Below the pieces are notes generated by a model. It made no database searches, was not told the DNA's origin, and was given only the letters and a program-made list of their open reading frames with translations. 64,000 nucleotides of DNA from Candidatus Sphingomonas phytovorans (GTDB lineage: Bacteria > Pseudomonadota > Alphaproteobacteria > Sphingomonadales > Sphingomonadaceae), in assembly GCA_029202385.1 (NCBI GenBank), contig CP119314.1, positions 4,639,001 to 4,703,000 of the forward strand. The letters are read 5' to 3'. Numbering within the stretch: position 1 is the stretch's first letter; each line of letters opens with the position of its first letter. Below, one piece after another: positions 3,735-64,000 of this stretch. Made by a program: the position numbers and the translations under genes.

Positions 3735-3765
3735 TCCTACCGGCGTCAGCCGGTATGTCGTTCAG

Positions 3766-19236: not shown

Positions 19237-19312
19237 GCCGCTTTAGCTCAGTTGGTAGAGCATCGCATTCGTAATGCGGGGGTCACAGGTTCGAGTCCTG
19301 TAAGCGGCACCA
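19237..19312 (+). tRNA. tRNA-Thr (anticodon CGT), CCA encoded
   Basis: A 76-nt cloverleaf with acceptor arms gccgctt/aagcggc, a D arm with agctcagttggtagagc, anticodon stem tcgca/tgcgg around the loop ttcgtaa (CGT at 19270-19272), a T arm with ggttcgagtcc and a templated CCA end. It reads ACG threonine codons. A tyrosine integrase gene follows within 150 bp in the same orientation, so its 3' end is the likely integration site of the island. Confidence 0.97.
19288..19312 (+). other. Probable left attachment site (3' end of tRNA-Thr)
   Basis: Integrases of the P4 type normally recombine at the T-arm/acceptor end of a tRNA gene and restore it. The tRNA is complete and the integrase begins just downstream, so the left att core should lie here. 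I found no second copy of the tRNA 3' end in the window, so the right end is probably beyond 64000. Confidence 0.6.
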
Positions 19313-19462
19313 GTCCATAACGGGAACCCTCCTAGAAAACCGCAGAAATCTGCGGTAAACTGCCTCTCGGCGGTCCCATGAAGTCTCATTATGTTCCGCC
19401 GTGGCCCACTCAAAAGGGACCACGAAACGTGGGGCCACGAGCAGTTCAGGAGGCGTGGCCCC

Positions 19463-47158: not shown

Positions 47159-47232
47159 AATCTCTTGGGATTACCGCGTCCCGAGATTGATGAAATCTTT
47201 CGAGGGCGCGCTTATACGTCGTGCCGACGTGG
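47159..47232 (+). other. oriT: Origin of transfer (oriT), Ti/RSF1010-like nic region
   Basis: Between divergent traC and traA lies gggcgcgctta (47204-47214). It resembles the nic core shared by RSF1010 and Ti-type oriT (GGGCGC then CTTA). It is followed at once by a perfect 6-bp inverted repeat acgtcg/cgacgt around tgc (47216-47230), placed as in those origins. A longer imperfect repeat (aatctc..ggga with tcccgagatt, 47159-47188) lies upstream, and a 9-bp hairpin sits at 47093-47119. Together these are the expected landing site for TraA. Confidence 0.8.
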
Positions 47233-47259
47233 CTTTTGAGGTGTAGATGGATCGCCGTC

Positions 47260-50190
47260 ATGGCGATCTACCATTTCTCGGCCAAGGTCATCTCGCGCGC
47301 TGCCGGATCGAGCGCGGTTGCGGCTGCCGCCTACCGCTCCGCCTCGCGGCTGCACGACCAGCGGCTCGATCGCCATCACGACTTCTCGAACAAGGCCGGC
47401 GTCATCCACTCCGAGGTGATGCTGCCGGACGGCGCGCCTGAGCATCTCGCCGACCGCGAGAAACTGTGGAACGCGGTCGAGGCGGCCGAGAAGCGGATCG
47501 ACGCGCAACTGGCGCGCGAGATCGAGTTCGCGATCCCGCGCGAGCTGGACCAGGCCGAGGGCATCCGGCTGGCGCGTGCGTTCGTCCGCGCCGAGTTTGT
47601 CGATCGTGGCATGATCGCTGATCTCAATGTCCATTGGGATATCGGCGCCGATGGCGAGGCCAGGCCCCACGCCCATGTGATGCTGACCCTACGCGACGTT
47701 GGCGAGGACGGGTTCGGCCGGAAGAACCGCGACTGGAATCGCACGGACCTGTTGGAGCGTTGGCGCGAGCGCTGGGCCGAGCATGCGAACCGGCGGCTCG
47801 CCGAGCTCGATATCGATGCACGGATCGATCACCGCTCGCTTGAGGCGCAGGGCATCGACCTTGAGCCGCAGCACAAGATCGGGCCGGCCGCGTCGCGCAT
47901 GGTCGCGCAAGGCCTGGCATCCGAACGGCTCGTAGAACACCAGGCCATCGCCCGCGCCAATGGCGAGAAGCTGCTGGCGAACCCGGCGCTCGCGCTCGAC
48001 GCGATCACGCACCAGCAGGCGACATTCACGCACCGCGACCTCGCGATGTTCGTCCATCGCCATAGCGAGGGGAAGGAGCAGTTCGACCAGGTGATGGCGG
48101 CAGTGAAAGCCACGCCCGAGCTGGTCGCGCTTGGCAAGGACGGACGAGGCGAAGATCGGTTCACCAGCCGTGAGATGATCGAGACCGAGCAACGGCTGGA
48201 ACGCGCCACGACCGCGATGGCCGAACGGCTTGGGCATGGTCTTCCGGCGGCGACGCTGGACCGTGCCATCGCCGCCGCCGAAAGTGGCGGCCTGGTGTTG
48301 GGACAAGACCAACGCGCCGCGGTGGTGCGTCTAGCGAGCGGCCGCGACCTCGACATTGTCATAGGTTATGCCGGCACCGGAAAATCGGCGATGCTCGCGG
48401 TCGCGCGCGAAGCGTGGGAGAGCGCCGGCTATCGGGTCCAGGGCTTGGCGCTGTCGGGTATCGCGGCGGAAAATCTCGAAAGTGGTTCGGGCATCGCGTC
48501 ACGCACCATCGCCAGCCTGGAGTATCAATGGTCGCAGGGTCGCGATCTCCTGACGAACCGCGACGTGTTGGTGATCGACGAAGCCGGGATGATCGGTTCG
48601 CGGCAGATGGAGCGCGTGATCGCCGAAGCGGAGAAGCGCGGCGCGAAGGTCGTGCTGGTCGGCGATCCCGAACAGCTCCAGGCGATCGAGGCGGGAGCCG
48701 CGTTCCGCTCGATCGCGGAACGGCACGGCAGCGTCGAGATCACCGACATCCGACGCCAGCGCGCGGACTGGCAGCGCGATGCCACCCGGCAGCTTGCCAC
48801 CGGTCGAACCGGGGAGGCGCTCCATGCCTATGACGAGCATGGCCATGTCCACGCCGCCGAGACGCGCGAGCAGGCGCGCGTTGATCTGGTCGACCGCTGG
48901 GACCGTGATCGTATCGCCGCGCCGACGGCGACGCGGATCATCCTCACGCACACCAATGACGAGGTGCAGATGCTCAACCGGGCCGCCCGCGAGCGGCTGC
49001 GTGTCGCCGGCCAGCTTGGCGAGGATGTCACGCTTCGGACCGAGCGAGGGCAGCGAACGTTCGCCTCCGGCGACCGGATCATGTTCCTCAAGAATGAGCG
49101 CGGGCTTGGCGTGAAGAACGGTTCGCTCGGCGTCGTCCAGAACGTCACCAGCGCGCGCATGGCGGTGATGCTCGATGATGGGCGCGCGGTGGCGTTCGAC
49201 CTCAAGGATTATAACCGGATCGATCACGGCTACGCCGCGACGATCCACAAGGCGCAAGGGATGACGATCGATCGGGCGCATGTGCTGGCGACGCCGGGGC
49301 TTGATCGGCACGCCGCCTATGTCGCGCTGTCACGCCACCGCGACAGCGTCGACCTTCATTATGGCCGCGACGATTTTGCCGAACCCGCAAAGCTCGTGCG
49401 CGCGCTATCGCGCGATCGCGCCAAGGACATGGCCTCGGACTACACCCGAGATCCTTCGACGGCGCTCAGGAGAGCCTTTGCCGATCGGCGGCAGATACGC
49501 TTGCCCGAACCGGTGGTTGAGAAAGCGAAGCCTGCTCCGCTACGCGATCCGTTCGCGGGCCTCGGCCTGCGGCCGGTCACGCTACCGCCATCGCGCGGCA
49601 TGTTCGACGGGGTGCGGATCGCGACACCGCAGCCGGTGGGCATCACGCAATCGCTTGGGCTGGAAGCTGCCGTGCAGCGGTTCGCCCGCACCACCGCGGA
49701 TATCCTGCGGATGCGCAACGACGGCTATACCGAGTTGCCGCACCAGCGCATCGCGTTCGACAAGGCGCGCGCGGCGCTGGATGCGGCCCGCCCCGACGCT
49801 TCCCGGGATCTCCGTGCGGCGTTCGCGCGCCAGCCTCACCTGATCGATGAAACAGCCAGGGGTCGCACCAGCGCGGCGATGCGCGCGATGAAACTGGAAG
49901 CGGAACTGCGCGCCAATCCGGCGCGTCGCGCCGATCGGTTCGTGGAGGACTGGCGGAAGCTCGCCACAGCCCATCGGACGCTGCGCCATGCCGGCGACGA
50001 TGCGGGTGTCCGCGCCATCGGGCAGCAGATGAGTGTCCTGGGTAAAAGCATGGAGCGCGATGCGCAGGCCGAGTCGCTGGTCAGGAAGCGGCTTCCGGAA
50101 CTCGGCATGCGGATGCGCGAGGGCGCGTCGATATTCCACAGCATCCAGGACTGGCTCGGCCTCTCGCGTGGTCGCGGCCTTGGGCGATAG
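47260..50190 (+). CDS. traA: TraA relaxase-helicase (MOBQ, Ti type)
   Basis: A 976-residue conjugative relaxase. ATG 47260 gives the family start MAIYHFSAKVISRAAGSSAV; the frame is open to 47221. The relaxase domain contains the likely nucleophile Tyr25 (AAAAYRSASRL) and the metal-binding histidines in GEARPHAHVMLTLR. The helicase domain has Walker A DIVIGYAGTGKSAM, DEAGMIGSRQ, VLVGDPEQLQAI, and late motifs YAATIHKAQGMTIDR and YVALSRHR. It nicks oriT and unwinds the transferred strand. The gene is intact. No type IV secretion genes are in view, so the island is at least mobilizable. Confidence 0.95.
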   Translation: MAIYHFSAKVISRAAGSSAVAAAAYRSASRLHDQRLDRHHDFSNKAGVIHSEVMLPDGAPEHLADREKLWNAVEAAEKRIDAQLAREIEFAIPRELDQAEGIRLARAFVRAEFVDRGMIADLNVHWDIGADGEARPHAHVMLTLRDVGEDGFGRKNRDWNRTDLLERWRERWAEHANRRLAELDIDARIDHRSLEAQGIDLEPQHKIGPAASRMVAQGLASERLVEHQAIARANGEKLLANPALALDAITHQQATFTHRDLAMFVHRHSEGKEQFDQVMAAVKATPELVALGKDGRGEDRFTSREMIETEQRLERATTAMAERLGHGLPAATLDRAIAAAESGGLVLGQDQRAAVVRLASGRDLDIVIGYAGTGKSAMLAVAREAWESAGYRVQGLALSGIAAENLESGSGIASRTIASLEYQWSQGRDLLTNRDVLVIDEAGMIGSRQMERVIAEAEKRGAKVVLVGDPEQLQAIEAGAAFRSIAERHGSVEITDIRRQRADWQRDATRQLATGRTGEALHAYDEHGHVHAAETREQARVDLVDRWDRDRIAAPTATRIILTHTNDEVQMLNRAARERLRVAGQLGEDVTLRTERGQRTFASGDRIMFLKNERGLGVKNGSLGVVQNVTSARMAVMLDDGRAVAFDLKDYNRIDHGYAATIHKAQGMTIDRAHVLATPGLDRHAAYVALSRHRDSVDLHYGRDDFAEPAKLVRALSRDRAKDMASDYTRDPSTALRRAFADRRQIRLPEPVVEKAKPAPLRDPFAGLGLRPVTLPPSRGMFDGVRIATPQPVGITQSLGLEAAVQRFARTTADILRMRNDGYTELPHQRIAFDKARAALDAARPDASRDLRAAFARQPHLIDETARGRTSAAMRAMKLEAELRANPARRADRFVEDWRKLATAHRTLRHAGDDAGVRAIGQQMSVLGKSMERDAQAESLVRKRLPELGMRMREGASIFHSIQDWLGLSRGRGLGR

Positions 50191-51630: not shown

Positions 51631-52680
51631 ATGAATTCTTATGAGTTCGCGGCTATTCGCGGGGTTCAGGCGGGGCGCGCGTACTATGTGATCATGGTTC
51701 CGCTGCGTTCGCTCGGGCGCCTCCTCTCCTTTGACGAAGAGGAACTTCCACTTCGGCTACGGGCTCAGCGCGAGCTAAACAAAACGCGGATTCCGGCGAT
51801 CACTCGCTATATCAACGAGAATCCTAGCGAATACGTGCTATCGGCCCTTTCCGCGTCGATCGGCGGCGCGTTCAGCTTCGAGCCAGTCCCTGGGCAGCGT
51901 TCAATCGGCACGTTAAGCGTGGACATGCAAGCAACGATCCTAGTCAACGACGGCCAACATCGCCGCGCTGGTATCGTCGAGGCGATCAGGGAGCGCCCGA
52001 CGCTCGGCAATGAGACGATCGCGGTGACACTGTTCCCAGACGAGGGGCTTGAGCGCTCGCAGCAGATGTTCGTTGACCTCAACCAGCACGGCGTCAGACC
52101 CGCACGCTCGTTGAGACTTTTCTTCGACGGCCGCGACGAGGCGGCTCGGCTGACGCGTCAGGTCGCCGCCGCGATTCCGTTGCTCCGCGACATGACCGAT
52201 TTCACGCGGTCGAACCTGCCGGCGGGATCGCGCAAGCTCTTCGCGTTCAGCAACCTCCACACGGCGATCACGACGTTGGTGTCGGACGCGGCGCTGCCGG
52301 CGACCGCCAACGACCCGTCCCTCGTCGTCGAGTTCTGGGAGGCGGTGATCGCCAACATGCCCGATTGGATCGCCGCCGGTAGGCGCGAGGTCAGTTCTGC
52401 AGACTTGAGGCGCGAGACCATCCACGCACACGGCATCGCGCTCGAGGCCATCGCGATTGCGGGTGCGCGCATGATCGTCGAGCGGCCTGACGGGTGGCGC
52501 GCGCCGCTCACTGGCCTGCGTGACATCGATTGGTCGCGCGGCAACACCAGCGACTGGGAGGGGCGCGCGCTAGTCAACGGCCGCATCAACAGGTCGCGCA
52601 CCAGCGTGCTGCTAACGGCCGAGCTCATTTCCCGGGCGCTGGCCAACAAAGACGCTGACGACGCGGACCGGATGGGTTAA
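51631..52680 (+). CDS. dndB: DNA phosphorothioation protein DndB (DGQHR family)
   Basis: A 349-residue protein. The signature DGQHRR lies at residues 107-112 (ILVNDGQHRRAGI), followed by VDLNQHGVRPARSLRLFFD, as in DndB. DndB binds DNA and modulates transcription and frequency of phosphorothioation; it is not needed for the sulfur chemistry. It starts the operon. The gap to dndC is 23 bp. Confidence 0.93.
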   Translation: MNSYEFAAIRGVQAGRAYYVIMVPLRSLGRLLSFDEEELPLRLRAQRELNKTRIPAITRYINENPSEYVLSALSASIGGAFSFEPVPGQRSIGTLSVDMQATILVNDGQHRRAGIVEAIRERPTLGNETIAVTLFPDEGLERSQQMFVDLNQHGVRPARSLRLFFDGRDEAARLTRQVAAAIPLLRDMTDFTRSNLPAGSRKLFAFSNLHTAITTLVSDAALPATANDPSLVVEFWEAVIANMPDWIAAGRREVSSADLRRETIHAHGIALEAIAIAGARMIVERPDGWRAPLTGLRDIDWSRGNTSDWEGRALVNGRINRSRTSVLLTAELISRALANKDADDADRMG

Positions 52681-52703
52681 GATTTCAGATCAAGGCGGGT
52701 CCA

Positions 52704-54209
52704 ATGAAGAACGACAATCGAGAAGACGACAATTCGCGCCTCAGGCGCATCCATGACGACGTCCGCGAGATTTACCTCTCCGACAGCCGCCCCTGGGTCG
52801 TGGGCTACTCTGGCGGCAAGGATTCCACGACGGCTTTGCAGCTGATCTGGGCGGCGATCTCCACGCTCCCGCCCGAGAAGCGATCCAAGACGATATATGT
52901 GATCAGCTCGGACACCCTGGTCGAGACGCCGGTCGTCTCCAACTACATCGACGTATCGCTGAAGCGCATCGCGCAGGCCGCGATCGAGCAGGACATGCCG
53001 GTCGTCACGCACAAGGTCGTACCTGACGTCGACCGCAGCTTCTGGGTGAACCTGATCGGTCGCGGCTATCCGGCTCCGTCACGGCGCTTCCGCTGGTGCA
53101 CCGAGCGGCTGAAGATCGAGCCGGCCAATGACTTCATCCGCAGCCGCGTCGCCGAGTTCGGCGAGGTCGTAATGGTGCTGGGCGTGCGGAGCCAGGAATC
53201 CGCCACCCGCGCCCAGGTCATGTCACTCCACGCCATCGAAGGATCGCGGCTGTCCAAACACTCGTCGCTGCTCAACGCGTTCGTCTACGCGCCGATTGCC
53301 GACTTCTCGACCGACGATGTCTGGACCTACCTGCTTCAGAACCAGTCGCCCTGGGGAAACGACAACCGCGACCTCGTTGCCATGTACCGCAACGCTTCCT
53401 CTGCAGGCGAATGCCCTCTCGTGGTCGACACCTCGACGCCGTCGTGCGGCAACTCGCGGTTTGGCTGCTGGGTCTGCACGGTCGTCGAGCGCGACAAGGC
53501 GATGGAGGCGATGATCGATTCCGGCGAGGAGTGGCTTACCCCGCTCCTCGAGTTCCGCGACAAGCTGTCGGAGACGCAGGATCCCGCGCGCAAGTTGGAG
53601 TTCCGCGACTACCGTCGGCGCACGGGCGGCGTGTCCTTCATCGGCGACACCGACCGCGTGATGCCGGGACCCTACACGATGGATTTCCGGCGCGAGTTGT
53701 TGCGCGGGCTGCTCGAGACGCAGCGTCAGGTAGCCGTCGAGGCACCCGCCGGCGAGGCGCCGATCCTGATCCATCCGCACGAGCTCCACGAGATCCGGCG
53801 GCTGTGGCGCACCGAGCGCGGCGACTGGCAGGATTCGGTACCGCGGATCGTGCGCGAGACGCTCGGCAAGGATGCCGGCTTCGTTGAGCCCGACTGGGTG
53901 TCGGAGGACGCTGTCGCGTTCACGACCGAGGACGGGGAACTTCTGAACGCGATCTGCGCGGAGAACGACGTGCCGACCGAGCTGGTGATGCGCCTGCTCG
54001 ACGTCGAGCGCGCATCGCACGGCCTCAAGCGCCGCCATGCCGTACACACCCGGATCGAGGACGTGTTCAAACTCGACTGGCGCGACCTCGACACCGTCGT
54101 CGCCGAACGCCGGGAGAAGCTGGGCATCGTGCCGGCCTCTACCAACGGTGAGACCGGCGACGACGAGGAGCTTGAGCTTCCGTTTGACGGCGAGGAGGAC
54201 GCCCGATGA
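52704..54209 (+). CDS. dndC: DNA phosphorothioation protein DndC (PAPS reductase-like ATPase)
   Basis: A 501-residue protein that activates the DNA backbone for sulfur insertion. The ATP-pyrophosphatase loop is SGGKDST (residues 36-42). Cysteines at 132 (RFRWCTERLK), 237, 248, 255 and 258 (STPSCGNSRFGCWVCTVVER) fit the iron-sulfur site described for DndC. The long acidic C-terminus ends ELELPFDGEED. The stop overlaps the dndD start (ATGA). Confidence 0.95.
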   Translation: MKNDNREDDNSRLRRIHDDVREIYLSDSRPWVVGYSGGKDSTTALQLIWAAISTLPPEKRSKTIYVISSDTLVETPVVSNYIDVSLKRIAQAAIEQDMPVVTHKVVPDVDRSFWVNLIGRGYPAPSRRFRWCTERLKIEPANDFIRSRVAEFGEVVMVLGVRSQESATRAQVMSLHAIEGSRLSKHSSLLNAFVYAPIADFSTDDVWTYLLQNQSPWGNDNRDLVAMYRNASSAGECPLVVDTSTPSCGNSRFGCWVCTVVERDKAMEAMIDSGEEWLTPLLEFRDKLSETQDPARKLEFRDYRRRTGGVSFIGDTDRVMPGPYTMDFRRELLRGLLETQRQVAVEAPAGEAPILIHPHELHEIRRLWRTERGDWQDSVPRIVRETLGKDAGFVEPDWVSEDAVAFTTEDGELLNAICAENDVPTELVMRLLDVERASHGLKRRHAVHTRIEDVFKLDWRDLDTVVAERREKLGIVPASTNGETGDDEELELPFDGEEDAR

Positions 54210-56212
54210 TCCTCCGCACCATCGAGATTGAGAACTTCGGCCTCTACTCCGGCCGGCAGGTCCTTGACCTGGTCCCGCGTCGCAGTCCCGGGTGCGAGAC
54301 CCCGGTCGTTCTGTTCGGCGGTCGCAACGGCGCTGGCAAGACCACTCTGCTTGAGGCCGTCCGCCTCGCGCTCTACGGTCGGCTCGCGCTCGGTCACCGG
54401 GTCGGCCAGAACGAGTACGAGCAGCACCTGCGGTCGCGCATGCACGTCGGCCCCGGCGGCCGCGTCGCTGGTTCGGCCTCCGTCGGCCTCGAGTTCGACT
54501 ATTCTGAAGGCGGCCGGATCCAGCGCTACCGCGTCGTCCGCCGCTGGTCGCCGAAGGGCGCGAGCGCCGGCGAGGTGCTGCTGCTCGAGAAGGACGGCAA
54601 GCCGGTCGAATCCGTTCCGCGCGAGGAGTGGCACCACTTCCTGCAGGAGCTGATCCCGCCGGGCGTATCGCAGCTGTTCTTTTTCGACGGCGAGAAGATC
54701 GCGGAGATTGCCAACGACGAGGTAGACGAATCGCTGGGCGACGCGGTGCGCGGCCTGCTCGGGATCGAGCTCGTCGGGCGCCTGCGGACCGACCTCGGAC
54801 TGTTCATGGCCCGCCGCGCCAAGTCCGGAGATGCCGTCGCCGCAGCCAAGCTCGAGGAGGTCGTCCGCGAGGAGGAGAGGCTCGGCGCGCGCATCTCCGA
54901 GATGCAGGAAACCGTGGCCGAGCTGGTCTCGCGCCGGGCCGGCCAGGCACGCCTCGCCTCGAACGCTCGCCAACGCTTCGCGGCCGAGGGCGGCGACGCC
55001 GCCAACCAACGTGCCATGCTCGAGGCGGCACGTGACGAGACGCGCCACCAGATCAGCCGCCGCGAGACCGAGCTGCGCGAGCTCGCCGGCGGCCTGCTGC
55101 CCTTCGCCATGGCACCCCGCGTTGGTGAACGGCTAATGAACCTGCTGTCGCGCTCGAACGGTGGGAGCGGCGCGGAGGCGGCGGCGCTGCGCGAGCGCCT
55201 GCTGACGTGGCGCGCGACCGGCCATCCGCCGCGCGCCGCTTTATGGAAGGACGGTCACTGGCGCGATCTCGAGGCATTCCTGATCGCAGCGGCGCTGGCG
55301 CCCGCCAACTTCTCCGACGAGCCGCTTTCGGATCTGGAATCCGGGGAGCGCGCCGCGCTGCTGCATCAGCTGCGCGAGGTCCGCGAGGTCACGGCCGCTA
55401 GGTCCGCGCTGATCGCATCCGAGCTGCACCGTCTCGGCGGGCGCCTGAAGGACGTTGAGGCCAACCTCGTCCGGGCCTCGGGCGAGGGCGCCGGTGTCGT
55501 CCTCGACGAGCTCGTCCTCGCCGAGCAGCAGGTCGGCGCGCTCGACGCCGAGCTGAAGGCGCGGGAGGAGGAGCTGAAGGCGCTCACATATCGCCAGAAG
55601 TCGCTCGGACGCGAGCGCGAGCGTCTTCTCAAGGCGCAGTCCGAGGCGGCGGCGTCCGAGGGACGTGCCGCGCTGGCGGGCCGCATCGGTATCGCGCTCC
55701 AGCAGTACGAGGACCGCTTGCTTGAGACCAAGTTGAGCCGCCTCCAGTCGGAATTCGTACAGCGCTTCAACCACCTCGCCCGCAAGGGCGGGTTCCTGGC
55801 TGACGCGCGCATCGACCGGACGACGTTCGAGACCACGCTGATCGACCGGGACGGCAACGAGATCACTAAGTCGGCGCTCTCCGCTGGCGAGAAGCAGATC
55901 TACGCGATCGCGATGCTGTGGGCGCTCGCCCACACCAGCGGCCGGGCGCTGCCGATGATCATCGACACCCCGCTTGCACGCCTCGATTCCGAGCATCGCG
56001 CCGCGCTAGTCGAGCGGTACTTCCCCGAGGCGAGCCATCAGGTGATAGTGCTCTCAACGGACACCGAGGTCGACGACAGACTGCTGGAGCGGCTCATGCC
56101 GGCGGTCAGCCACACGTACCGGCTGGACTACGACCCGGAGCAGCGGTCGACGACCGCCCGTCCGGGCTACTTCGATGACGAGGAGCGCACCGATGCGGTT
56201 CACCAAGCTTAA
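54206..56212 (+). CDS. dndD: DNA phosphorothioation protein DndD (SMC-like ATPase)
   Basis: A 668-residue ABC/SMC-type ATPase. Walker A is GGRNGAGKTT at residues 38-47; FFFDGEKIAEIANDEVDESL is typical of DndD; coiled-coil regions fill the middle. The signature motif lies in KSALSAGEKQIYAIAMLWAL and Walker B in LPMIIDTPLARLDSEHR. DndD is thought to couple ATP hydrolysis to DNA structure changes during sulfur incorporation with DndC and DndE. Length is normal. Confidence 0.95.
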   Translation: MILRTIEIENFGLYSGRQVLDLVPRRSPGCETPVVLFGGRNGAGKTTLLEAVRLALYGRLALGHRVGQNEYEQHLRSRMHVGPGGRVAGSASVGLEFDYSEGGRIQRYRVVRRWSPKGASAGEVLLLEKDGKPVESVPREEWHHFLQELIPPGVSQLFFFDGEKIAEIANDEVDESLGDAVRGLLGIELVGRLRTDLGLFMARRAKSGDAVAAAKLEEVVREEERLGARISEMQETVAELVSRRAGQARLASNARQRFAAEGGDAANQRAMLEAARDETRHQISRRETELRELAGGLLPFAMAPRVGERLMNLLSRSNGGSGAEAAALRERLLTWRATGHPPRAALWKDGHWRDLEAFLIAAALAPANFSDEPLSDLESGERAALLHQLREVREVTAARSALIASELHRLGGRLKDVEANLVRASGEGAGVVLDELVLAEQQVGALDAELKAREEELKALTYRQKSLGRERERLLKAQSEAAASEGRAALAGRIGIALQQYEDRLLETKLSRLQSEFVQRFNHLARKGGFLADARIDRTTFETTLIDRDGNEITKSALSAGEKQIYAIAMLWALAHTSGRALPMIIDTPLARLDSEHRAALVERYFPEASHQVIVLSTDTEVDDRLLERLMPAVSHTYRLDYDPEQRSTTARPGYFDDEERTDAVHQA

Positions 56213-56564
56213 AATCTCGGCTGACGCCGAGAGCCGCCTCAGGTCGCTCCGCCAGCGCACGGGCATGACGCCCAACCTCCTCTGCCGCATGGCGATCATG
56301 CTGTCGCTGGAGGAGGGACCGGTGGGCGCCGGCACGGCCACCGACGACGGTGGAAACGAGTTCAACGCCTACACGTTAACCGGCGATCACAACGGCCTCA
56401 TCGTCGCAATGCTGCGACTCGTTGAGGAGGAGGCCGAGGGTCGCCGCGTACCCGACGACGAGTTGCTCGCTCGGCTGCGTGCGCACATCCACCGAGGTGT
56501 CGCCACGCTCTCGGTCCGCGCCAAGGGCCCGGGGGACGTAGCGGTACTGGCCGCCGCCGCATGA
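56193..56564 (+). CDS. dndE: DNA phosphorothioation protein DndE
   Basis: A 123-residue protein from ATG 56193 (GAGGAGC upstream), overlapping dndD by 20 bp. It starts MRFTKLKISADAESRLRSLR with RTGMTPNLLCRMAIMLSLEE, the compact helical DndE pattern, and has the EFNAYTLTGDHNGLIVAML block. DndE binds nicked DNA and completes the DndCDE core. The stop overlaps the next start by 4 bp. Confidence 0.92.
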   Translation: MRFTKLKISADAESRLRSLRQRTGMTPNLLCRMAIMLSLEEGPVGAGTATDDGGNEFNAYTLTGDHNGLIVAMLRLVEEEAEGRRVPDDELLARLRAHIHRGVATLSVRAKGPGDVAVLAAAA

Positions 56565-57730
56565 CCGTGGCAGCGGACATGCCGCTCTACCTCGACAACA
56601 ACGCGACCACGCCGACCGACCGGCGCGTTGTGGACGCGATGCTGCCCTACTTCACCGAAGTGTTCGGTAACCCCTCCAGCGTTGAGCACCTTCACGGCAA
56701 CCGCGCGCAAGCCGCCGTCGCGAGAGCCCGTTCCCAAGTGGCCGCACACCTCGGCGCCCGAGACAACGAGATCGTGTTCACGGGCAGTTGCACCGAGGCC
56801 AGCAACATCGCAATTCTCGGTGCTGCGCGCGCGCGTCCGGGCCGGCGTCACCTGATCACTTCGGCCGTCGAGCACCCGGCCGTCCTGGAGCCGTTCCGCC
56901 AACTCGAGCGCGAGGGATTTGAGGTGACGGTCCTTGGGGTTGACGAATTCGGGCAGGTCGATCCGGCCGCGGTCGAGGCGGCGATCCGCGAGGACACCGG
57001 CCTGATCTCGATCATGGGCGCCAACAACGAGGTTGGCACGACACAGCCGATCGGTGCGATCGGCGCACTGTGCGAGCTGCGAGGAATCCTCTTCCACACC
57101 GACCTCGCTCAGGTGCTCGCCCACCGTAAGGTCGACGTCATCGCCGAGCACATCCACCTCGCCAGCGTCTCGGGCCACAAGGCCTATGGCCCGAAGGGCG
57201 TGGGCGCTCTCTACGTCCGTTCGCGATCGCCGCGCGCTCGGTTGGAGCAGACCGTCTGGGGTGGCGGACAGGAGCGCGGCTTGCGCTCGGGCACGCTCGC
57301 CGTGCCCATGATAGTGGGCCTCGGCGAGGCGCTCGCGATCGCCGGTCGCGAGGCTGCGCGGGAAGGCGCTCGCCTCGCCGCCATGTGTGCCGACCTCGCC
57401 GATACGATTGTCAGGACCGTCGACGGAGCCGTTGCCAACGGCCATCCGACCGAGCGTATTCCCGGCAACGTCTCGCTGTCCATCGTCGGCATCGAGCCGC
57501 TGGCGCTGATGCATCGACTCAACCAGGTCGCAAGCTTCTCGGCGTCGAGCGCCTGTGCGACCGACAAGGTTCAGACCAGCCACGTCCTGTTGGCAATGTT
57601 CGGCGACACGCAACGCGCGCGGCAAGCGTTCCGCGTCTCACCGGGCCGTTTCACGACCTCAAAGGAACTGGACGCCTTCGCCGGCGCTCTCGTCGATGTG
57701 GTCGCCGAGCTGCGCCGATTCGCGGCCTGA
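56561..57730 (+). CDS. Cysteine desulfurase of the dnd operon (DndA-like)
   Basis: A 389-residue PLP enzyme that takes sulfur from cysteine and passes it to DndC. The PLP lysine is Lys207 in SVSGHKAYGPKGVG; the persulfide-forming cysteine is Cys332 in SASSACATDKVQTSHVL; the start LYLDNNATTP is canonical for NifS/IscS. It is the fifth gene, after dndE. dndA is often upstream or absent (IscS substitutes), so the order B-C-D-E-A is a useful marker of this lineage. Confidence 0.9.
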   Translation: MTVAADMPLYLDNNATTPTDRRVVDAMLPYFTEVFGNPSSVEHLHGNRAQAAVARARSQVAAHLGARDNEIVFTGSCTEASNIAILGAARARPGRRHLITSAVEHPAVLEPFRQLEREGFEVTVLGVDEFGQVDPAAVEAAIREDTGLISIMGANNEVGTTQPIGAIGALCELRGILFHTDLAQVLAHRKVDVIAEHIHLASVSGHKAYGPKGVGALYVRSRSPRARLEQTVWGGGQERGLRSGTLAVPMIVGLGEALAIAGREAAREGARLAAMCADLADTIVRTVDGAVANGHPTERIPGNVSLSIVGIEPLALMHRLNQVASFSASSACATDKVQTSHVLLAMFGDTQRARQAFRVSPGRFTTSKELDAFAGALVDVVAELRRFAA

Positions 57731-57736
57731 GACGGG

Positions 57737-58432
57737 GTGACCTACCCTGCAGACGAGGTCGAGGAGAAGCTCGTGGATGTTCCCGAGCTATTCCTATTCC
57801 TACGTCGAGCGGTTCCCGACGCGACCGTCGTAACGCACGACAGGGCGTTCATAAACAACATCGCGTTCGCCTTGCAGTATCTAGACCATCTGCTCCAAAC
57901 GATAGCGGCGCCGGACGTCCGCATCACGATCCACAGCCAGACATGCAAGTCGATCGTGATGTGCGGCATGGGAATCGTCGAGGCGATCCTGTGGTTCGGG
58001 GTGAAAAAGGCGGGACAGGCGAACACCTCGTCTTGGCAAGAGAGCAGCAAGCAGACCGGTACGCCCTTCGATAGGTTCGGCAAGCGGCTCAGGATCGACA
58101 GCATTCTAATGGAGGAGGTCAGTCCGCCACAGCACGAGGAGATGACCCTCGATACGCTCATCAAGAAGGTCGAATCCAGAGGATTGCTCGGGCTTTCCGA
58201 CCACAGGGTGTACGGCACACTCAAGGCACTGCGGCAACTGAGGAACAGAGTCCACATTCATGACGTGGGGACTGCGGACGATACCGACTGGTACAAGTTT
58301 ACCGGCCGCGAAGTCGTGATGCTACTGAATTGTCTAAATGCGATTTTCTCCACCAACCTGTTTAACCCGGAACCGCACCATATCGATCTGCTGTCTTTCC
58401 TTGACCCCGTTCGGGTGGAGCGGAAGCGATGA
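57737..58432 (+). CDS. Unknown protein with HEPN-like motif, first gene of the dnd-linked module
   Basis: A 231-residue protein from a GTG 6 bp after the desulfurase stop, overlapping the helicase gene by 4 bp. It is mostly helical. The segment VYGTLKALRQLRNRVHIHDV contains R-x5-H in an R-N-x-x-H context, as in HEPN ribonucleases and related abortive-infection proteins. Other parts (SQTCKSIVMCGMGIVEAILW) are not recognised. No nuclease of PD-ExK or HNH type is visible. It could be the killing component, but this is inference from motif and position only. Confidence 0.6.
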   Translation: MTYPADEVEEKLVDVPELFLFLRRAVPDATVVTHDRAFINNIAFALQYLDHLLQTIAAPDVRITIHSQTCKSIVMCGMGIVEAILWFGVKKAGQANTSSWQESSKQTGTPFDRFGKRLRIDSILMEEVSPPQHEEMTLDTLIKKVESRGLLGLSDHRVYGTLKALRQLRNRVHIHDVGTADDTDWYKFTGREVVMLLNCLNAIFSTNLFNPEPHHIDLLSFLDPVRVERKR

Positions 58433-60360
58433 AGTCGGAGAACGCCCAGCCGCCGAACCTCAAGCGACTTCCGACGCCGCTGCTGCTCGAAACCTCAACC
58501 GACAACATCATTCGATCCTTCTTCGAGCCCGCATTAAGGGCTTCCACTAGTTACGACCGTGGTGTCGGCTACTTCACCTCAGGTTGGCTGCGGCTCGCTT
58601 CAGCTGGCCTCGATGGCTTCGCAGAGAATGGCGGCAAGGCCCGCTTCCTCGTCAGCCCGCACCTCTCAGAGGATGACTGGATCGCGATCCGCGACGGCAG
58701 TGAAGCGAAGAATGATGCAATCCTTCGGGATGCGCTCCTGTCAGTAGTCGAGGAACTTAAGTCACTCGGTGATGACCCGGCGGTTGCAATGCTCGCTGCG
58801 CTGGTCGCCACGGGCACACTGGAATTCAAGATCGCTATGCCCGTTGGTGCGCTGGACGGGGATTTCCACGACAAGTTCGGGGTCTTCCGCGACGACTTGG
58901 GAAACGCGATCGCATTTCATGGTTCGCAGAACGACAGCGAGAAGGCTTACCGGAACTTCGAGGCCATCAGTCTATACTATAGCTGGCTGGGGAGGATCGA
59001 GTCGCAGCGAGTCAATTCGCATAAGGAACGATTCGATCGGCTGTGGAATAATCTCGACGAGAACCTGCGTTCGATCGCTGTTCCGGAGGTGGTCATCAAT
59101 GAGCTCAAACTCATCCACCGTCGTCGACAGGAGCGTAACGGCCCCGGCCACCAAGTTGTCGATGACGCCAGATGGCAGCATCAGACCCAAGCCGTGGACG
59201 CCTTCTGCGCCGCTGGAGCGGGCGTCCTCGAAATGGCGACCGGTACGGGCAAAACGAGAACCGCGCTCAAGATACTAGACCGCCTGCTCCACGAAAGAAG
59301 GGTCACTAGCTGCGTGGTGACCATGTCGGGAACCGACCTGCTGGATCAGTGGTACGAAGAGCTGGCGGCTAGAGACGACCTCGTCATCCACAGGTCCTAC
59401 GGTGGCCATCACGAGGAGCTGTCATTTCTAAACGACCCTGCCGGTGCCGTCCTGCTTGCGTCCCGCCAAGCGCTACCCGCCATAGTGACGCGCATGCCGC
59501 GGACCCTGCCCGCGAACGCGCTGCTGATCTGCGACGAGGTTCACGGCATGGGCTCGGCATCGATGGTGCGCGAGCTGAGCGGCGAACTCGTCCGCTTTCG
59601 CTACCGGCTCGGCCTCAGCGCCACACCCGAGCGCGAATACGATGCTGAGGGAACGGATTTCGTTGAGCGGGAGATCGGTCCGGTCGTGTTCCGGTTCGGC
59701 CTTGAGGAAGCAATCCGGAAGGGTATCCTCTGCGGGTTCGACTATATTGAGCTCGGTTACGAGTTTTCGGACGAGGACAAGGTGGCGGTGCGCGCTGCAA
59801 TCGCCGCCTATCATGCGCGGCGAAAGGCCGGCAGGGACCCGGGAATCGAATCAATGTACCGGGAAATCGCAGCCGTCGGGAAGACGACTCGCAGTAAGCT
59901 GCCGGCATTCACTGACTTCATCAGACGTAGGCCAGAGGTGTTGAAGCGGGCAGTATTGTTCGTGGAGACCTCCGATTTCGGACTGGACGTCCAGCACATC
60001 ATCCTACCCATCGCCCGGAACTACCATACCTACTACGCCGAGGACGATCGTCGGAATCTGGTCCGCTTCGCATCGGGGGAGCTGGAAACGGTCATCACCT
60101 GTCACCGTATCTCCGAGGGCATCGACATTCGTTCAGTGAACGCGATCATCCTCTTCGCTTCCTCCCGGGCCAGGCTCGAAACGGTACAGAGGCTGGGGCG
60201 CTGTCTGCGCAAGGATCCAAGCAATCCCTCGAAGCGCGCTCTGGTTGTCGATTTCATCAGGCACGACGACATCTCGGACGAACCCGATAGCCTTCCGACC
60301 AGCGATCAGGCACGAAGCGCTTGGCTCCGGAAGCTCGCGCGGATCGGTGCAGACAACTAA
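58429..60360 (+). CDS. PLD-like plus SF2 helicase, candidate phosphorothioation-dependent restriction enzyme
   Basis: A 643-residue protein. The N-terminal 200 residues look like a phospholipase-D-type nuclease: His147-x-Lys149 in DGDFHDKFGVFRD, then HGSQNDSEKAYRNFE. A helicase follows with MATGTGKT (269-276), DEVH (369-372), LSATPERE (about 396-403), CHRISEGIDI and LETVQRLGRCLRK. The combination resembles the helicase family repeatedly linked to dnd clusters and called phosphorothioation system restriction enzyme. It would translocate and cut DNA lacking sulfur. ATGA overlap with the upstream gene. Confidence 0.8.
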   Translation: MKSENAQPPNLKRLPTPLLLETSTDNIIRSFFEPALRASTSYDRGVGYFTSGWLRLASAGLDGFAENGGKARFLVSPHLSEDDWIAIRDGSEAKNDAILRDALLSVVEELKSLGDDPAVAMLAALVATGTLEFKIAMPVGALDGDFHDKFGVFRDDLGNAIAFHGSQNDSEKAYRNFEAISLYYSWLGRIESQRVNSHKERFDRLWNNLDENLRSIAVPEVVINELKLIHRRRQERNGPGHQVVDDARWQHQTQAVDAFCAAGAGVLEMATGTGKTRTALKILDRLLHERRVTSCVVTMSGTDLLDQWYEELAARDDLVIHRSYGGHHEELSFLNDPAGAVLLASRQALPAIVTRMPRTLPANALLICDEVHGMGSASMVRELSGELVRFRYRLGLSATPEREYDAEGTDFVEREIGPVVFRFGLEEAIRKGILCGFDYIELGYEFSDEDKVAVRAAIAAYHARRKAGRDPGIESMYREIAAVGKTTRSKLPAFTDFIRRRPEVLKRAVLFVETSDFGLDVQHIILPIARNYHTYYAEDDRRNLVRFASGELETVITCHRISEGIDIRSVNAIILFASSRARLETVQRLGRCLRKDPSNPSKRALVVDFIRHDDISDEPDSLPTSDQARSAWLRKLARIGADN

Positions 60361-60604
60361 GGGAAAGTTCCGCTACACGTGGCGGATGCGCGGGAACCCG
60401 TGCTTGGGGAGGGCCGGGAAAATTCCACTTCATCCTGAAATAGAAGAGGCGGCTACGGCGGTGCTCGACGCCGTGGACCAGCCCGTGGAATTCAAGCGTC
60501 GACTGCTCGCGCTAATCCGTAACGACGCCGAGGACGGTGCGAGCGACGGTGACGTCGCTGGCGTAGTCGCGTCTGCAAACGCGGAATCGGACACGGGGCA
60601 CTGA
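60347..60604 (+). CDS. Small protein of the dnd-linked module
   Basis: An 85-residue protein. The probable start is the GTG at 60347, overlapping the helicase stop by 14 bp; an ATG at 60386 is the alternative. It reads GKFRYTWRMRGNPCLGRAGK then IEEAATAVLDAVDQPVEFKR, a basic N-terminus and a helical acidic C-terminus. I do not recognise it. It ends 2 bp before the ATPase gene, so it is clearly part of the operon; an adaptor role is conceivable. Confidence 0.65.
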   Translation: MQTTKGKFRYTWRMRGNPCLGRAGKIPLHPEIEEAATAVLDAVDQPVEFKRRLLALIRNDAEDGASDGDVAGVVASANAESDTGH

Positions 60605-60606
60605 GC

Positions 60607-62580
60607 ATGGACATTCGCATCACAGGATGGCGCTGCCAGAACATTCGCGGCAACCTTCGCGACGTCGCGATCGACCTCACCATGACGCCCCCTCGGTGGA
60701 CGCTCATCCAGATGAGCAATGGCGGTGGCAAGACGACCACGACCTCATTGATCCGCGCGGCGCTGACGGGTGTCGAACCCACCGCTACATTCGTCAAAGC
60801 GCTTCGACCCGAAGATGGCGCCACCAATGGCACCTTCGAGCTCAACCTCCTGATCGATGGTGCGCTCCATCGGATCCAGCTGCTGTTCGACTATCTGACA
60901 GGGAACTCGCGCGTTACCACCTCTCGAGCGGCGACTCTCGGCGGCGGCATGATGGACATCCATTCTCTGCCCGCAGATTCCGCCACCCTCAAGTCGCCAG
61001 AGTTCGTCGAGCTGTTCGTGTTCGATGGCGAACTCGCGCGGAAGATTCGCGACAACGGTTCGGATCGGGCCAGCAAGGCCATTGAGACGTTGTATGGGAT
61101 CGACAAGCTGGGTGGTCTCCGAGACCAGATCGAGAAATTGCTTGAGGCCGAGCAGAAGCGGGTCGCTGGTATCACGCAGGCTAAGGAAAAGGGCTGGGTC
61201 CAGAAGTACAAGACAGACATGGAAGCCGCTCGCGCCAAGCTCGTGGCTTTGGAGAAGCGGCGCGACGATGTTACTGCGAAGAAGGCGTACGAGACGGCTG
61301 AGTGCGACCGTCTCACCAAGGAGATCGGCGACCAGATCAACCAGAACAAGGCTGCAAAGGACGAACTCGAGGATCTCGAGAGCCAGTTGAACAGCGTCGA
61401 CCTTGTCATCCTCCAGCAGACCGGCGATCTTCGAGGAAAGCTCATCTCCCCGTTCCTATCCGCGCCCCACTCCCTCGAACGCCTCCGCGAACTGGGGTCA
61501 CAGCTTCAGGAGCTCAAGCTGCCCGAGGCGGCTACGGCCGAATTCTTCCATGAGCTGTCCCATTCCACCAACTGCGTGTGCGACCGGGAGATAACACCCG
61601 AGATCAAAGAGAAGATCGTGGCAAAGGCGGCCACGTTCATGGGTGCCGAGGAATCCGGGGTTCTGAACAGCATGAAGACCATGGTTCGGAGCACCAGCGA
61701 CGATCCGATCAGCCTCGACCAGCCGGTGGAAACGCTCAGGGGGCGCCTGCGGGAACGCCAGAGAGTAACCCAGAGGCTTCACCGACAGCGCGCCGCCTGG
61801 GTCAAGGCCGGAGGCATCGAACTGTCGGACAAGCAGGCGCTGGCGGAAGAGCACCGGAGCAAGGCCGCGAAGCTGGAATCGGAACTCGAGAGGATTGAAA
61901 GCGACGATCCCTCATTCCACATCACTAACGGACTTGGCTGGGAACAGAACATCCCGAAGTGCCGCGAGGTCGTCGCCCAGCGCGAGGAAACCTATAATAC
62001 CAGTACACAGACCCACAAGCTGCTCGTCCAGTCCCGTGCGACACAGGCTGTCATCCAGGCGATCGAGAAGGAGGCGCTGAACCGCATCAAGGAGAAGGTG
62101 CGGCAGGCTACGAATCTGAAGATCGCGAAGCTGGTCCCGGGCGAGCAACTCCAAGTGGTCCGCATCGGCAAGTCACTTGAACTCTCGTCGCGCAACCTCG
62201 CCCGAAAGGACAACGTCAGCGAGGGTCAGAGCCTTTCAATCGCATACGCCTTTCTGGCCAGTCTCTTCGAGACCGCGACGCACCGGCTACCTTTCGTAAT
62301 CGACAGTCCCGCGATACCGCTCGACAGCGAGATGAGGCGCGAGGTGATCAAGGTGGTGCCGGAGCTCTTCGAGCAGACGATCATGTTCGTCATCTCAACG
62401 GAGCGAAAGGACTTCGCGGAGAGGTTCTACGGGCGCGACGGAGCGCGGTTCATCACCCTCGTCCGCGGACCCGATGGATCGGTCGATCCGCGTGAAGGCC
62501 AGACCGAGTTCGATGAGTTTCAAGATGAGGATGACGCGATAATCGAGACGCCGGCTACCTCAGAGGCAAGCGCTATATGA
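60607..62580 (+). CDS. Second DndD-like SMC ATPase
   Basis: A 657-residue ABC/SMC-type ATPase. Walker A is MSNGGGKTTT at residues 36-45. ELFVFDGELARKIRDNG parallels the FFFDGE block of DndD. Long coiled coils (about 175-265 and 420-500) flank a hook with Cys-x-Cys (HSTNCVCDREITPE). The signature is VSEGQSLSIAYAFLA and the Walker B region FVIDSPAIPLDSEMRREV. It is clearly distinct from the true DndD upstream. A likely role is DNA sensing or loading for the restriction step. Confidence 0.82.
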   Translation: MDIRITGWRCQNIRGNLRDVAIDLTMTPPRWTLIQMSNGGGKTTTTSLIRAALTGVEPTATFVKALRPEDGATNGTFELNLLIDGALHRIQLLFDYLTGNSRVTTSRAATLGGGMMDIHSLPADSATLKSPEFVELFVFDGELARKIRDNGSDRASKAIETLYGIDKLGGLRDQIEKLLEAEQKRVAGITQAKEKGWVQKYKTDMEAARAKLVALEKRRDDVTAKKAYETAECDRLTKEIGDQINQNKAAKDELEDLESQLNSVDLVILQQTGDLRGKLISPFLSAPHSLERLRELGSQLQELKLPEAATAEFFHELSHSTNCVCDREITPEIKEKIVAKAATFMGAEESGVLNSMKTMVRSTSDDPISLDQPVETLRGRLRERQRVTQRLHRQRAAWVKAGGIELSDKQALAEEHRSKAAKLESELERIESDDPSFHITNGLGWEQNIPKCREVVAQREETYNTSTQTHKLLVQSRATQAVIQAIEKEALNRIKEKVRQATNLKIAKLVPGEQLQVVRIGKSLELSSRNLARKDNVSEGQSLSIAYAFLASLFETATHRLPFVIDSPAIPLDSEMRREVIKVVPELFEQTIMFVISTERKDFAERFYGRDGARFITLVRGPDGSVDPREGQTEFDEFQDEDDAIIETPATSEASAI

Positions 62581-63173
62581 CATTGCGGCGACCCAGAGGG
62601 ATGAAAGAGTACTTCAGGGACGTGCAGGGCCGAACTGATGCCGGTGCCCGGTTCGAGACGGACTTCGAGCAGTTCTACCTCTGTCTCATGGTCGGATTGG
62701 AGGATGGAAGGCTGGCGCCTGAATCAGAGCTCGAACCGGCCGAATTCACCAAGGACTACACCGCCCCGTTCCAGCCTTTCGCCCCAGTACTGGCGGGACT
62801 GCTGGTCGACGCGCAGTTGCGACGGCAGGACATTCCGCGAACGAAGGAGAGCCTGCAGCAGGAGGTCTCCAACCTCATCGACGTCGGCAATACGAGCACG
62901 AGGCTGAACCCCGACGCCACGAAACTACTCAGCCGCTATGCCGCCCGGGGCTTCACATTGATCCAGGCCGCCATCCCAAAGCCCCGTACGCTCGAGGATT
63001 TCCTCGTCGCATACCATCTGCGCTGGAGTGGTCAGGTCGGCGATCCATCGATTGCCCAGGAACCCTCCTCGTCCGTTGAAACCGTTAACGAGGTCGTAGC
63101 GGCCGGCGGTGAACTGCGCGTAGTGGGCGATGATCCGCCAACCACGAATGACGCCTCGGCAGAAGCCCAGTAG
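62577..63173 (+). CDS. Unknown protein of the dnd-linked module
   Basis: A 198-residue protein overlapping the ATPase stop by 4 bp (ATGA). It reads GMKEYFRDVQGRTDAGARFE and FEQFYLCLMVGLEDGRL in the first third, ESLQQEVSNLIDVGNTSTRL and YAARGFTLIQAAIPKPRTL in the middle, and a disordered tail after about residue 155. No catalytic motif is evident. Size and coupling to the ATPase suggest it is its partner, in the way DndE accompanies DndD. It ends the tightly overlapping run (115-bp gap follows). Confidence 0.65.
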   Translation: MTLRRPRGMKEYFRDVQGRTDAGARFETDFEQFYLCLMVGLEDGRLAPESELEPAEFTKDYTAPFQPFAPVLAGLLVDAQLRRQDIPRTKESLQQEVSNLIDVGNTSTRLNPDATKLLSRYAARGFTLIQAAIPKPRTLEDFLVAYHLRWSGQVGDPSIAQEPSSSVETVNEVVAAGGELRVVGDDPPTTNDASAEAQ

Positions 63174-63288
63174 GGGCGCTTAATCGGCAGACGCCGCGCG
63201 AAACGCACTACGCCGATCGCGAACCGTCCGGACATTCGGCATGTCAGAGAAAACGCGTCGTCCGGTTGCCGTATGATCGGGGCTGTGC

Positions 63289-63858
63289 ATGATGAGACCG
63301 AATACCTTCGACGGGGATGACATGTACGAAGAAATGGAGGCGAGGCCGGTTCCGCCCGCTTGGAAAGTGCTTCACAGGCGATGGACGCGGCCGAACAAGC
63401 AGCTGTCCTTCTGGACGTTCCTGCTCGTGGGTATCGTAGTCCTCGGTGGACTGGCGGTGTGGATCGAGGGCTACCGCTACTTTAACTTCGTTCCGACCGA
63501 TAAGCAGTCGTCTGCAGACCGCGCGCCTCTACAACTTGCGCTAGCGACTGCAGGCCTCGCCGTGGCGGGACCTGCGGCGATGCAGCTGCTCTACAGTAGA
63601 GACAAGCTCGCGATCGTCACCGCTATCCTGCTATTCACCGTCGAAATGATCTCCGCAATGTACCTGATGGTGTTTGGCGTTCCAAAGGACTGCGGCACCA
63701 TAGTCGGCGGTGTCACCTGTGTCGGGATCGCGATCGTCGCTTGGGTTCTGGCCAATGGCGAGGACGACATCTTCCAGGACGATGTCCCCAACGATGTGCC
63801 GGCCGGTGGGGATCCGATGCGTCACCTGCCGGGCGGCCCCGCTCCGGCGAAAGTCTAG
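63289..63858 (+). CDS. Membrane protein of unknown function
   Basis: A 189-residue protein with about four hydrophobic helices (FLLVGIVVLGGLAVWIEGY; LATAGLAVAGPAAMQLLY; AIVTAILLFTVEMISAMYLM; VTCVGIAIVAWVLA) and polar termini. The start may be ATG 63289, 63292 or 63322. It precedes a DndB-like gene by 3 bp. I do not recognise the family. It may belong to the defence cluster or be a passenger. Confidence 0.65.
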   Translation: MMRPNTFDGDDMYEEMEARPVPPAWKVLHRRWTRPNKQLSFWTFLLVGIVVLGGLAVWIEGYRYFNFVPTDKQSSADRAPLQLALATAGLAVAGPAAMQLLYSRDKLAIVTAILLFTVEMISAMYLMVFGVPKDCGTIVGGVTCVGIAIVAWVLANGEDDIFQDDVPNDVPAGGDPMRHLPGGPAPAKV

Positions 63859-63861
63859 ACC

Positions 63862-64000
63862 ATGTCGACGATATACCCGCTGCAAGTACCAGCTCTCAGG
63901 GTCGATCAACCCGTAGGCACTTTCTTCGCGGTCGTACTGAAGGCCCGCACCCTCCTCGATGTCGCCTACAGCGACGTCGTCAGCGCCAGGCGAGAGTCGG
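63862..64000 (+). CDS. DndB-like DGQHR-family protein (5' part, cut by window edge)
   Basis: 46 codons to the window edge, starting MSTIYPLQVPALRVDQPVGT then FFAVVLKARTLLDVAYSDVV. This opening (short strand, Q-P-x-G-x-F, alkaline loop, LLDV/Y-DV) is characteristic, as I remember it, of the DGQHR-domain proteins related to DndB. The motif itself would lie outside the window. It would be a second DndB homologue in the same cluster. Confidence 0.6.
   Translation, partial: MSTIYPLQVPALRVDQPVGTFFAVVLKARTLLDVAYSDVVSARRES

What the first reader, a model, noticed from the sequence alone, without database searches (positions are those of the whole stretch)
51631..64000. Phosphorothioation operon continuing into an unusual restriction-like module
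dndB-C-D-E plus a desulfurase gene run with overlaps or tiny gaps straight into five more genes: HEPN-motif protein, PLD-helicase, 85-residue protein, DndD-like ATPase, 198-residue unknown. None looks like DndF, DndG or DndH. The make-up is closer to the PbeABCD-type partner described with archaeal DndCDEA, or to helicase-type dnd restriction genes, but with its own small proteins. The overlaps imply one functional unit. It may be an undescribed bacterial variant of sulfur-based defence.
Basis: partly seen in the sequence, partly recalled or inferred. Interest (0 to 1): 0.88.

Follow-up and report, generated by a model that had tools for sequence, protein, structure and literature searches.

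The report
PbeABCD sulfur defence with added HEPN
This stretch holds a known kind of bacterial sulfur-on-DNA defence (dnd modification genes plus a PbeABCD module) with one uncommon extra gene, a probable RNA-cutting HEPN protein, built into the operon; it is a modest new variant, not a new system.

Summary
In detail: dndB-C-D-E-A (51631-57730) runs with overlaps and short gaps into five more genes (57737-63173). Four of the five genes are PbeA, PbeB (weakest), PbeC and PbeD, in published order. PbeA scores 640 bits against a PADLOC PbeA model. PbeC carries the CxC zinc hook seen in 10 of 10 PbeCs aligned. PbeA, PbeC and PbeD match Halorubrum trapanicum CBA1232, whose PbeAC Xiong et al. 2019 placed in their tree. 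PbeABCD is published as widespread in bacteria.

What remains unusual is the fifth gene, 57737-58432. Its predicted fold resembles HEPN RNases, with an invariant RN-x4-H motif in 13 of 13 rows. Its close subfamily is rare and tied to one branch of PbeA: all 6 close relatives (52-79%) on contigs of at least 3.9 kb share an exact contig length with a close PbeA homolog, and HEPN and PbeA diverge together (r = 0.96). Published work puts HEPN genes mostly at the edges of dnd loci; here it sits inside, with a 4-base overlap to pbeA.

The operon continues past the window into a broken DGQHR gene. Best reading: a PT-tagging PbeABCD system with a built-in RNase effector.

The parts
51631..52680 (+). 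DndB (DGQHR protein), probable regulator of the modification genes
   Evidence: TIGR03233 404 bits over cut-off 328; DGQHR motif at residue 107
52704..54209 (+). DndC, PAPS-reductase-like sulfurtransferase; its C-terminus weakly resembles the small-protein families Sp-DndD and PbeB
   Evidence: TIGR03183 584 bits over cut-off; SGGKD motif; PF20306 E 0.001 and PADLOC PbeB E 0.014 at residues about 409-456
54206..56212 (+). DndD ATPase of the modification set
   Evidence: TIGR03185 496.5 bits over cut-off; Walker A and B-like motifs present, no CxC
56175..56564 (+). DndE
   Evidence: TIGR03184 94 bits over cut-off 71.85
56561..57730 (+). Cysteine desulfurase (DndA/IscS-like)
   Evidence: TIGR03235 445.6 bits, below its cut-off of 480; SSAC motif
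57737..58432 (+). HEPN-like protein, 231 aa, GTG start, probable RNase; the unusual part
58429..60360 (+). PbeA: HKD (PLD-type) nuclease domain fused to SF2 helicase
   Evidence: PADLOC PbeA 639.8 bits; H147xK149, GSQN, Walker A, DEVH and QRLGR motifs intact and aligned in 10 of 10 PbeAs
60347..60604 (+). PbeB-type small protein; start uncertain (GTG 60347 or ATG 60386)
   Evidence: Position between pbeA and pbeC; BLAST E 1e-4 to the Priestia megaterium small protein; Sp-CxC E 0.064
60607..62580 (+). PbeC: CxC-type ABC ATPase
   Evidence: PADLOC PbeC 62 bits; CVC at residue 323, CxC in 10 of 10 aligned PbeCs; BLAST to PbeC of other loci, best E 4e-140
62577..63173 (+). PbeD
   Evidence: BLAST to PbeD in 10 of 21 loci, E 1e-32 (L017), 3e-27 (L018), 5e-16 (L019); fold model inconclusive
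63289..63858 (+). Membrane protein with four hydrophobic segments (TMp), probable accessory of the same operon
   Evidence: Hydropathy; relatives beside a DGQHR gene in L034 (E 2e-10) and L043 (E 3e-8)
63862..64000 (+). First codons of a DGQHR_dnd_1 (TIGR04172) gene that runs past the window to about 65158 (window numbering) and is split into two frames
   Evidence: Two pieces match TIGR04172 profile positions 1-210 and 202-381

Best explanation
A phosphorothioate (PT) self/non-self defence operon. DndA, C, D and E put sulfur into the backbone of host DNA at chosen sites, under DndB control. PbeC, with PbeD and the small PbeB, scans DNA, and PbeA (HKD nuclease plus helicase) acts on DNA that fails the test, stopping phage replication. 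The HEPN protein, translationally coupled to pbeA by an overlap, is an RNase arm: when the Pbe complex meets unmarked DNA, or fails to stop it, HEPN cuts RNA and halts the cell or the phage. Shown here by sequence: the Dnd genes, PbeA and PbeC with key motifs, PbeD homology, gene order and overlaps, a HEPN-like model with an invariant motif, and linkage and co-divergence of HEPN with PbeA. Published for a relative, not shown here: PT dependence and block of viral DNA replication (PMC6459918). Inferred, partly after PMC10853773: DNA scanning by PbeC/D, DNA attack by PbeA. Inferred by me: RNase activity, its gating by Pbe, and the suicide or back-up role.
For: Families and motifs. Same core order in other loci. 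HEPN fold and invariant motif. In Methylobacterium sp. D53M the tags are ACLBYG_25300 (HEPN) and ACLBYG_25280 (PbeD), as expected for the same order. HEPN and PbeA identities over seven loci: r = 0.96, reached by 13 of 5040 label permutations. Third-position GC is 0.80-0.87 in dndBCDE-A but 0.72-0.77 in HEPN, pbeA, pbeC and pbeD, so HEPN looks like part of the pbe block.
Confidence: 0.6

Rival explanations
1. The dnd-pbeABCD core is the whole working system, and HEPN is an independent toxin-like stabiliser of the island whose toxicity is held in check by a neighbouring gene product.
For: HepT-type HEPN toxins are the closest folds; the locus lies on an island beside tRNA-Thr with a tyrosine integrase, a ParB-domain protein and a MobA/MobL relaxase, where addiction genes are common (general knowledge).
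Against: No nucleotidyltransferase (MNT) partner among the Pfam hits of the operon proteins. HEPN overlaps pbeA by 4 bases and co-diverges with it.
Confidence: 0.2
2. HEPN is a non-enzymatic binding subunit that helps assemble or regulate the Pbe complex.
For: Linkage and co-divergence with PbeA; its motif spacing (R-x5-H, or R-x3-H) is not the R-x4-H recalled for HepT toxins.
Against: R169, N170 and H175 are invariant in 13 of 13, as expected for an active site; R-x4-6-H is the usual HEPN range (recalled).
Confidence: 0.15
3. HEPN is a passenger captured between two unrelated modules.
For: Absent from the other 26 pbeA loci; the search of 5.8 billion proteins listed 13 family members, the first being the window's own.
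Against: Exact contig-length match with PbeA in 6 of 6 close relatives on contigs of 3.9 kb or more (6 of 8 if the distant P0013 and P0014 are counted), co-divergence r = 0.96, same order implied by locus tags in Methylobacterium.
Confidence: 0.05

Closest known systems
DndCDEA-PbeABCD (Xiong et al. 2019, PMC6459918; abstract, passages and sections 8 and 10 seen)
   Same: PbeA PLD-Res-helicase, 66-aa PbeB, ATPase PbeC and 152-aa PbeD after dndCDEA in the same order; bacterial members reported there. PbeA, PbeC and PbeD of the window match the locus of H. trapanicum CBA1232 (43, 31 and 28% identity), a strain whose PbeAC that paper places in its tree.
   Different: The window adds dndB at the front, HEPN between the desulfurase and pbeA, and a TMp-DGQHR pair after pbeD.
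CxC ABC-ATPase / clade-2 DndE systems (Rakesh, Aravind and Krishnan 2024, PMC10853773; abstract, passages and sections 16 and 17 seen)
   Same: HKD+SF2 nuclease, small protein SP, CxC ATPase; the paper equates these with PbeABCD and reports tandem DndD and CxC systems in 936 bacterial and 41 archaeal taxa.
   Different: [quoted passage not shown] here HEPN is inside the operon and overlaps pbeA. PbeD as a DndE relative could not be confirmed here.
HEPN RNases: HepT of MntA-HepT, AbiV, Csm6 HEPN domain
   Different: No detectable sequence family; a beta insert at about residues 97-133; no MNT partner seen in the operon; linked to a PT system.
DndFGH
   Same: Also paired with dnd modification genes.
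   Different: None of its families among the listed hits of the ten proteins.

Membership tests
Dnd PT modification (DndBCDE plus desulfurase) | DndC, DndD and DndE over curated cut-offs in one operon with a desulfurase | tested here: met
   TIGR03183, TIGR03185, TIGR03184 and TIGR03233 over cut-off; the desulfurase is below the DndA cut-off (445.6 against 480).
Dnd PT modification (DndBCDE plus desulfurase) | Phosphorothioate present in the DNA | not testable with these tools
   Needs iodine cleavage, LC-MS or SMRT reads.
PbeABCD | PbeA: HKD nuclease plus SF2 helicase | tested here: met
   639.8 bits; motifs intact in alignment with nine others.
PbeABCD | PbeC: CxC-type ABC ATPase | tested here: met
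   CVC at residue 323; CxC in 10 of 10. PADLOC PbeC score is modest, 62 bits; the textbook Walker A pattern scanned for was not matched exactly.
PbeABCD | PbeB small protein between pbeA and pbeC | tested here: inconclusive
   Right position and size; E 1e-4 to one other small protein, Sp-CxC E 0.064.
PbeABCD | PbeD after pbeC, homologous to known PbeD | tested here: met
   E 1e-32 to 1e-7 in 10 of 21 loci, incl. H. trapanicum 5e-16.
PbeABCD | PT-dependent block of viral replication | not testable with these tools
   Shown only for the archaeal system (PMC6459918).
Clade-2 DndE (for PbeD) | Two ribbon-helix-helix units; relation to DndE | tested here: inconclusive
   [not shown]
HEPN RNase | HEPN helical fold | tested here: inconclusive
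   [not shown]
HEPN RNase | R-x4-6-H motif (recalled definition) | tested here: met
   R169-x5-H175 invariant in 13 of 13.
HEPN RNase | RNA cleavage | not testable with these tools
DndFGH | DndF, DndG or DndH in the locus or genome | tested here: inconclusive
   No such family among the hits listed for the ten proteins (three lists capped). Whole-genome scans for TIGR03237 and TIGR03238 were empty, but their controls were silent too.

The most novel reading that the evidence does not exclude
A distinct alphaproteobacterial subtype of PbeABCD in which a dedicated HEPN RNase, co-inherited with PbeA, is an integral effector switched on by Pbe sensing of unmarked DNA. A sulfur-on-DNA system would then kill or arrest through RNA, which could also bear on the published puzzle that PbeABCD stops viruses without visible DNA cleavage.
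Probability: 0.3. Interest if true: 0.6.

Novelty: new variant of a known kind. Interest (0 to 1): 0.36.

Why it matters
How PbeABCD stops viruses is disputed: block of replication without cleavage (Xiong 2019) or DNA cleavage or suicide by the HKD nuclease (Rakesh 2024). A subtype with a co-inherited, operon-internal HEPN offers a clean genetic test of whether an RNA-cutting suicide arm can be wired to PT sensing. It also shows that the PbeABCD core carries exchangeable accessory genes around it.

Tried and rejected
Standard DndFGH set: rejected for the ten proteins on family searches. Genome-wide absence of DndFGH is not claimed, because the control genomes were silent. Fold of PbeD by prediction gave a poor model and no match, so the clade-2 DndE identity is left open. 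Profile comparisons of PbeD with DndE and with dnd_assoc_4-type PbeD gave nothing firm, nor did dnd_assoc_4-type PbeD against DndE. HEPN against the PDB by sequence gave one row at E 0.059. The window's HEPN and the 'LRQFRN-x-ILHGKI' proteins of L033, L043 and L044 align only around the motif (P-value 0.02), so they are not claimed as one family. HEPN was sought in viral contigs and phage records (none), in plasmids (one at 26%), in genome contigs (one at 30%, records near the window's genome may be left out), in 385 genomes of the class (own only) and in 199 genomes of another family (none, where the tool warns that an empty answer alone shows nothing). In 100 relatives, PbeA at E 1e-3 was found in 12 genomes, the own one counted; apart from the own gene all were weak or partial (best E 4e-32). 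Promoter and terminator scan: not above shuffles. The Natrinema A29 helicase region proved not to be its pbe locus.

Papers: PMC10853773 abstract, passages, sections 16 and 17; PMC6459918 abstract, passages, sections 8 and 10; PMC12839542 passages only; all others search listings only. Searches made for HEPN with dnd, pbe or phosphorothioation in print; for SspABCD with PbeABCD; most subscription papers are not held.

Full report
WHAT IS THERE. The genes are real and packed as described. Family searches name DndB, DndC, DndD, DndE and a cysteine desulfurase at 51631-57730. Then come a 231-residue protein without any family, a helicase that is PADLOC PbeA at 639.8 bits, a small protein, a DndD-like ATPase and a 198-residue protein without a family.

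FOUR OF FIVE ARE PbeABCD. PbeA (40-52% identity), PbeC (27-39%) and PbeD (22-46%) occur together in that order in 10 of 21, among them Halorubrum trapanicum CBA1232, a strain whose PbeAC Xiong et al. place in their tree. The other 11 are more distant PbeA matches in which PbeD was not found with the window's protein; in several of them a gene in the PbeD place was matched with PbeDs of other loci. The window's PbeC has the CxC zinc hook (CVC at residue 323), conserved in 10 of 10 PbeCs aligned; the HKD, Walker A, DEVH and QRxGR motifs of PbeA are intact in the window and in the nine others. PbeB is the weakest identification: right place and size, one weak BLAST match, Sp-CxC at E 0.064. The paper of 2019 defines PbeA, B (66 aa), C and D (152 aa) in this order after dndCDEA and reports them in bacteria; the paper of 2024 equates them with the CxC ATPase systems. 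So the central claim of an undescribed module does not stand.

HOW COMMON, AND WITH WHAT. PbeA at E 1e-40 was found in 4 of 385 genomes of the class, 5 of 398 of the phylum and 5 of 328 of the family; each count includes the window's own genome. Adding 5 loci from four genomes of the family gives 26 loci: 14 carry dndC in the stretch read, 2 carry SspABCD-type genes instead (L046 by PADLOC; L045 by likeness to L046), 1 shows only a dndD at its edge, 1 (L030) only a desulfurase and part of a dndB, and 8 show neither (one of them, L035, is cut by a contig end beside pbeA). The core carries changing neighbours: a sigma-70-region-4 protein before pbeA in 8 of 26, a RelA/SpoT-domain protein in 4, a GmrSD-type protein after pbeD in 4, a TMp-DGQHR pair in 5, and the 'HEPN2' family in 4 (Pfam checked on one or two members each; the DGQHR genes of L034 and L043 by NCBIfam). 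HEPN2 is a motif-based label; the two members tested hit no Pfam family.

LINKAGE TO PbeA. Eight HEPN relatives lie on contigs of at least 3.9 kb. For the six close ones (52-79% identity) the longest-contig length equals that of a close PbeA relative (59-81%) in every case, and four of these lengths recur among PbeD relatives. The other two, P0013 and P0014 (38-40%), match none of the 120 PbeA rows listed (3406 passed the cut). P0005, P0010, P0012 and P0015 lie on contigs of 1.4-1.7 kb and cannot be judged. In reverse, of ten PbeA relatives at 59-81%, six match a HEPN contig, three do not (P0046, P0047, P0049) and one contig is too short (P0048). Over seven loci HEPN and PbeA identities correlate at 0.96; 13 of 5040 label permutations reach that. 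Third-position GC groups HEPN with pbe rather than with dnd. No member of this family was found in the other 26 pbeA loci; in 385 class genomes only the own genome has it. Distant relatives in Parapedobacter (30%, at a contig edge) and on a Synechococcus plasmid (26%) have no dnd or pbe match in the stretches held.

After pbeD comes a membrane protein (63289-63858) and then a DGQHR_dnd_1 gene that runs past the window and is split between two frames. The whole lies on an island: tRNA-Thr at 19237-19312, a phage-type integrase at 19391-20680, and a 123-column repeat of 19292-19414 at 65556-65676, 84% identical.

MECHANISM. See best explanation. PT tagging and Pbe interference follow from published work on a relative; the RNase arm is inference from fold, motif, overlap and co-inheritance. 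I give 0.6 to that reading as a whole, about 0.95 to the plain statement 'dnd plus PbeABCD'.

VERDICT. An ordinary core with one interesting, clade-restricted extra gene: new variant of a known kind, interest 0.36.

Noticed in passing
L046 2739-13837 (Sphingomonadaceae plasmid CP099618.1); also L045: SspA-B-C-D (PADLOC 365, 335, 1087 and 434 bits) run straight into pbeA, a small protein and pbeC: a PbeABCD module behind the other PT modification system. L045 has a similar set on the opposite strand, with pbeA after pbeD.
   Followed up: partly
L020, L034, L039, L043, L044, L048, L056, L057: A long protein (732-1026 residues where read) with a sigma-70 region 4 domain (Pfam run on two) sits directly before pbeA, in four loci after a RelA/SpoT-domain gene: a recurrent accessory.
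   Followed up: partly
L033 10906-11859, L043 4842-5747, L044 4874-5773: A different family with an LRQFRN-x-ILHGKI stretch (possible HEPN) lies between the desulfurase and pbeA, on the opposite strand; a relative is in L031.
   Followed up: partly
L017 14521-16359, L032 4544-6358, L033 4335-6209, L055: A roughly 600-residue GmrSD-type restriction protein (Pfam GmrSD_N and GmrSD_C on the L017 member) follows pbeD in four relatives without HEPN.
   Followed up: partly
window 63862 onward, to about 65158: DGQHR_dnd_1 gene split over two reading frames: a real frameshift or an assembly error.
   Followed up: partly
window 19237-20680 and 65556-65676 (past the window end): Probable boundaries of a roughly 46-kb integrative island at tRNA-Thr, with a second integrase-like start beside the far repeat (by eye).
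   Followed up: partly
window 26440-42186: A single open frame of 5248 residues, Rhs/YD-repeat-like by eye, inside the same island.
   Followed up: no
window 43488-45218 and 47221-50190: ParB-domain protein and MobA/MobL relaxase with helicase domains, suggesting the island is mobilisable.
   Followed up: partly
window 3315-9732: Type I restriction set (HsdM, HsdS and HsdR domains) behind an IS200-like transposase, outside the island.
   Followed up: partly
window 52704-54209, residues 409-456: The DndC C-terminus weakly matches the small-protein families Sp-DndD (E 0.001) and PbeB (E 0.014), possibly a fused copy.
   Followed up: no
L016 65-2686: A distant HEPN relative in Parapedobacter lies next to a deaminase-domain gene (Pfam dCMP_cyt_deam_1), reminiscent of anti-phage deaminases (recalled).
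   Followed up: partly
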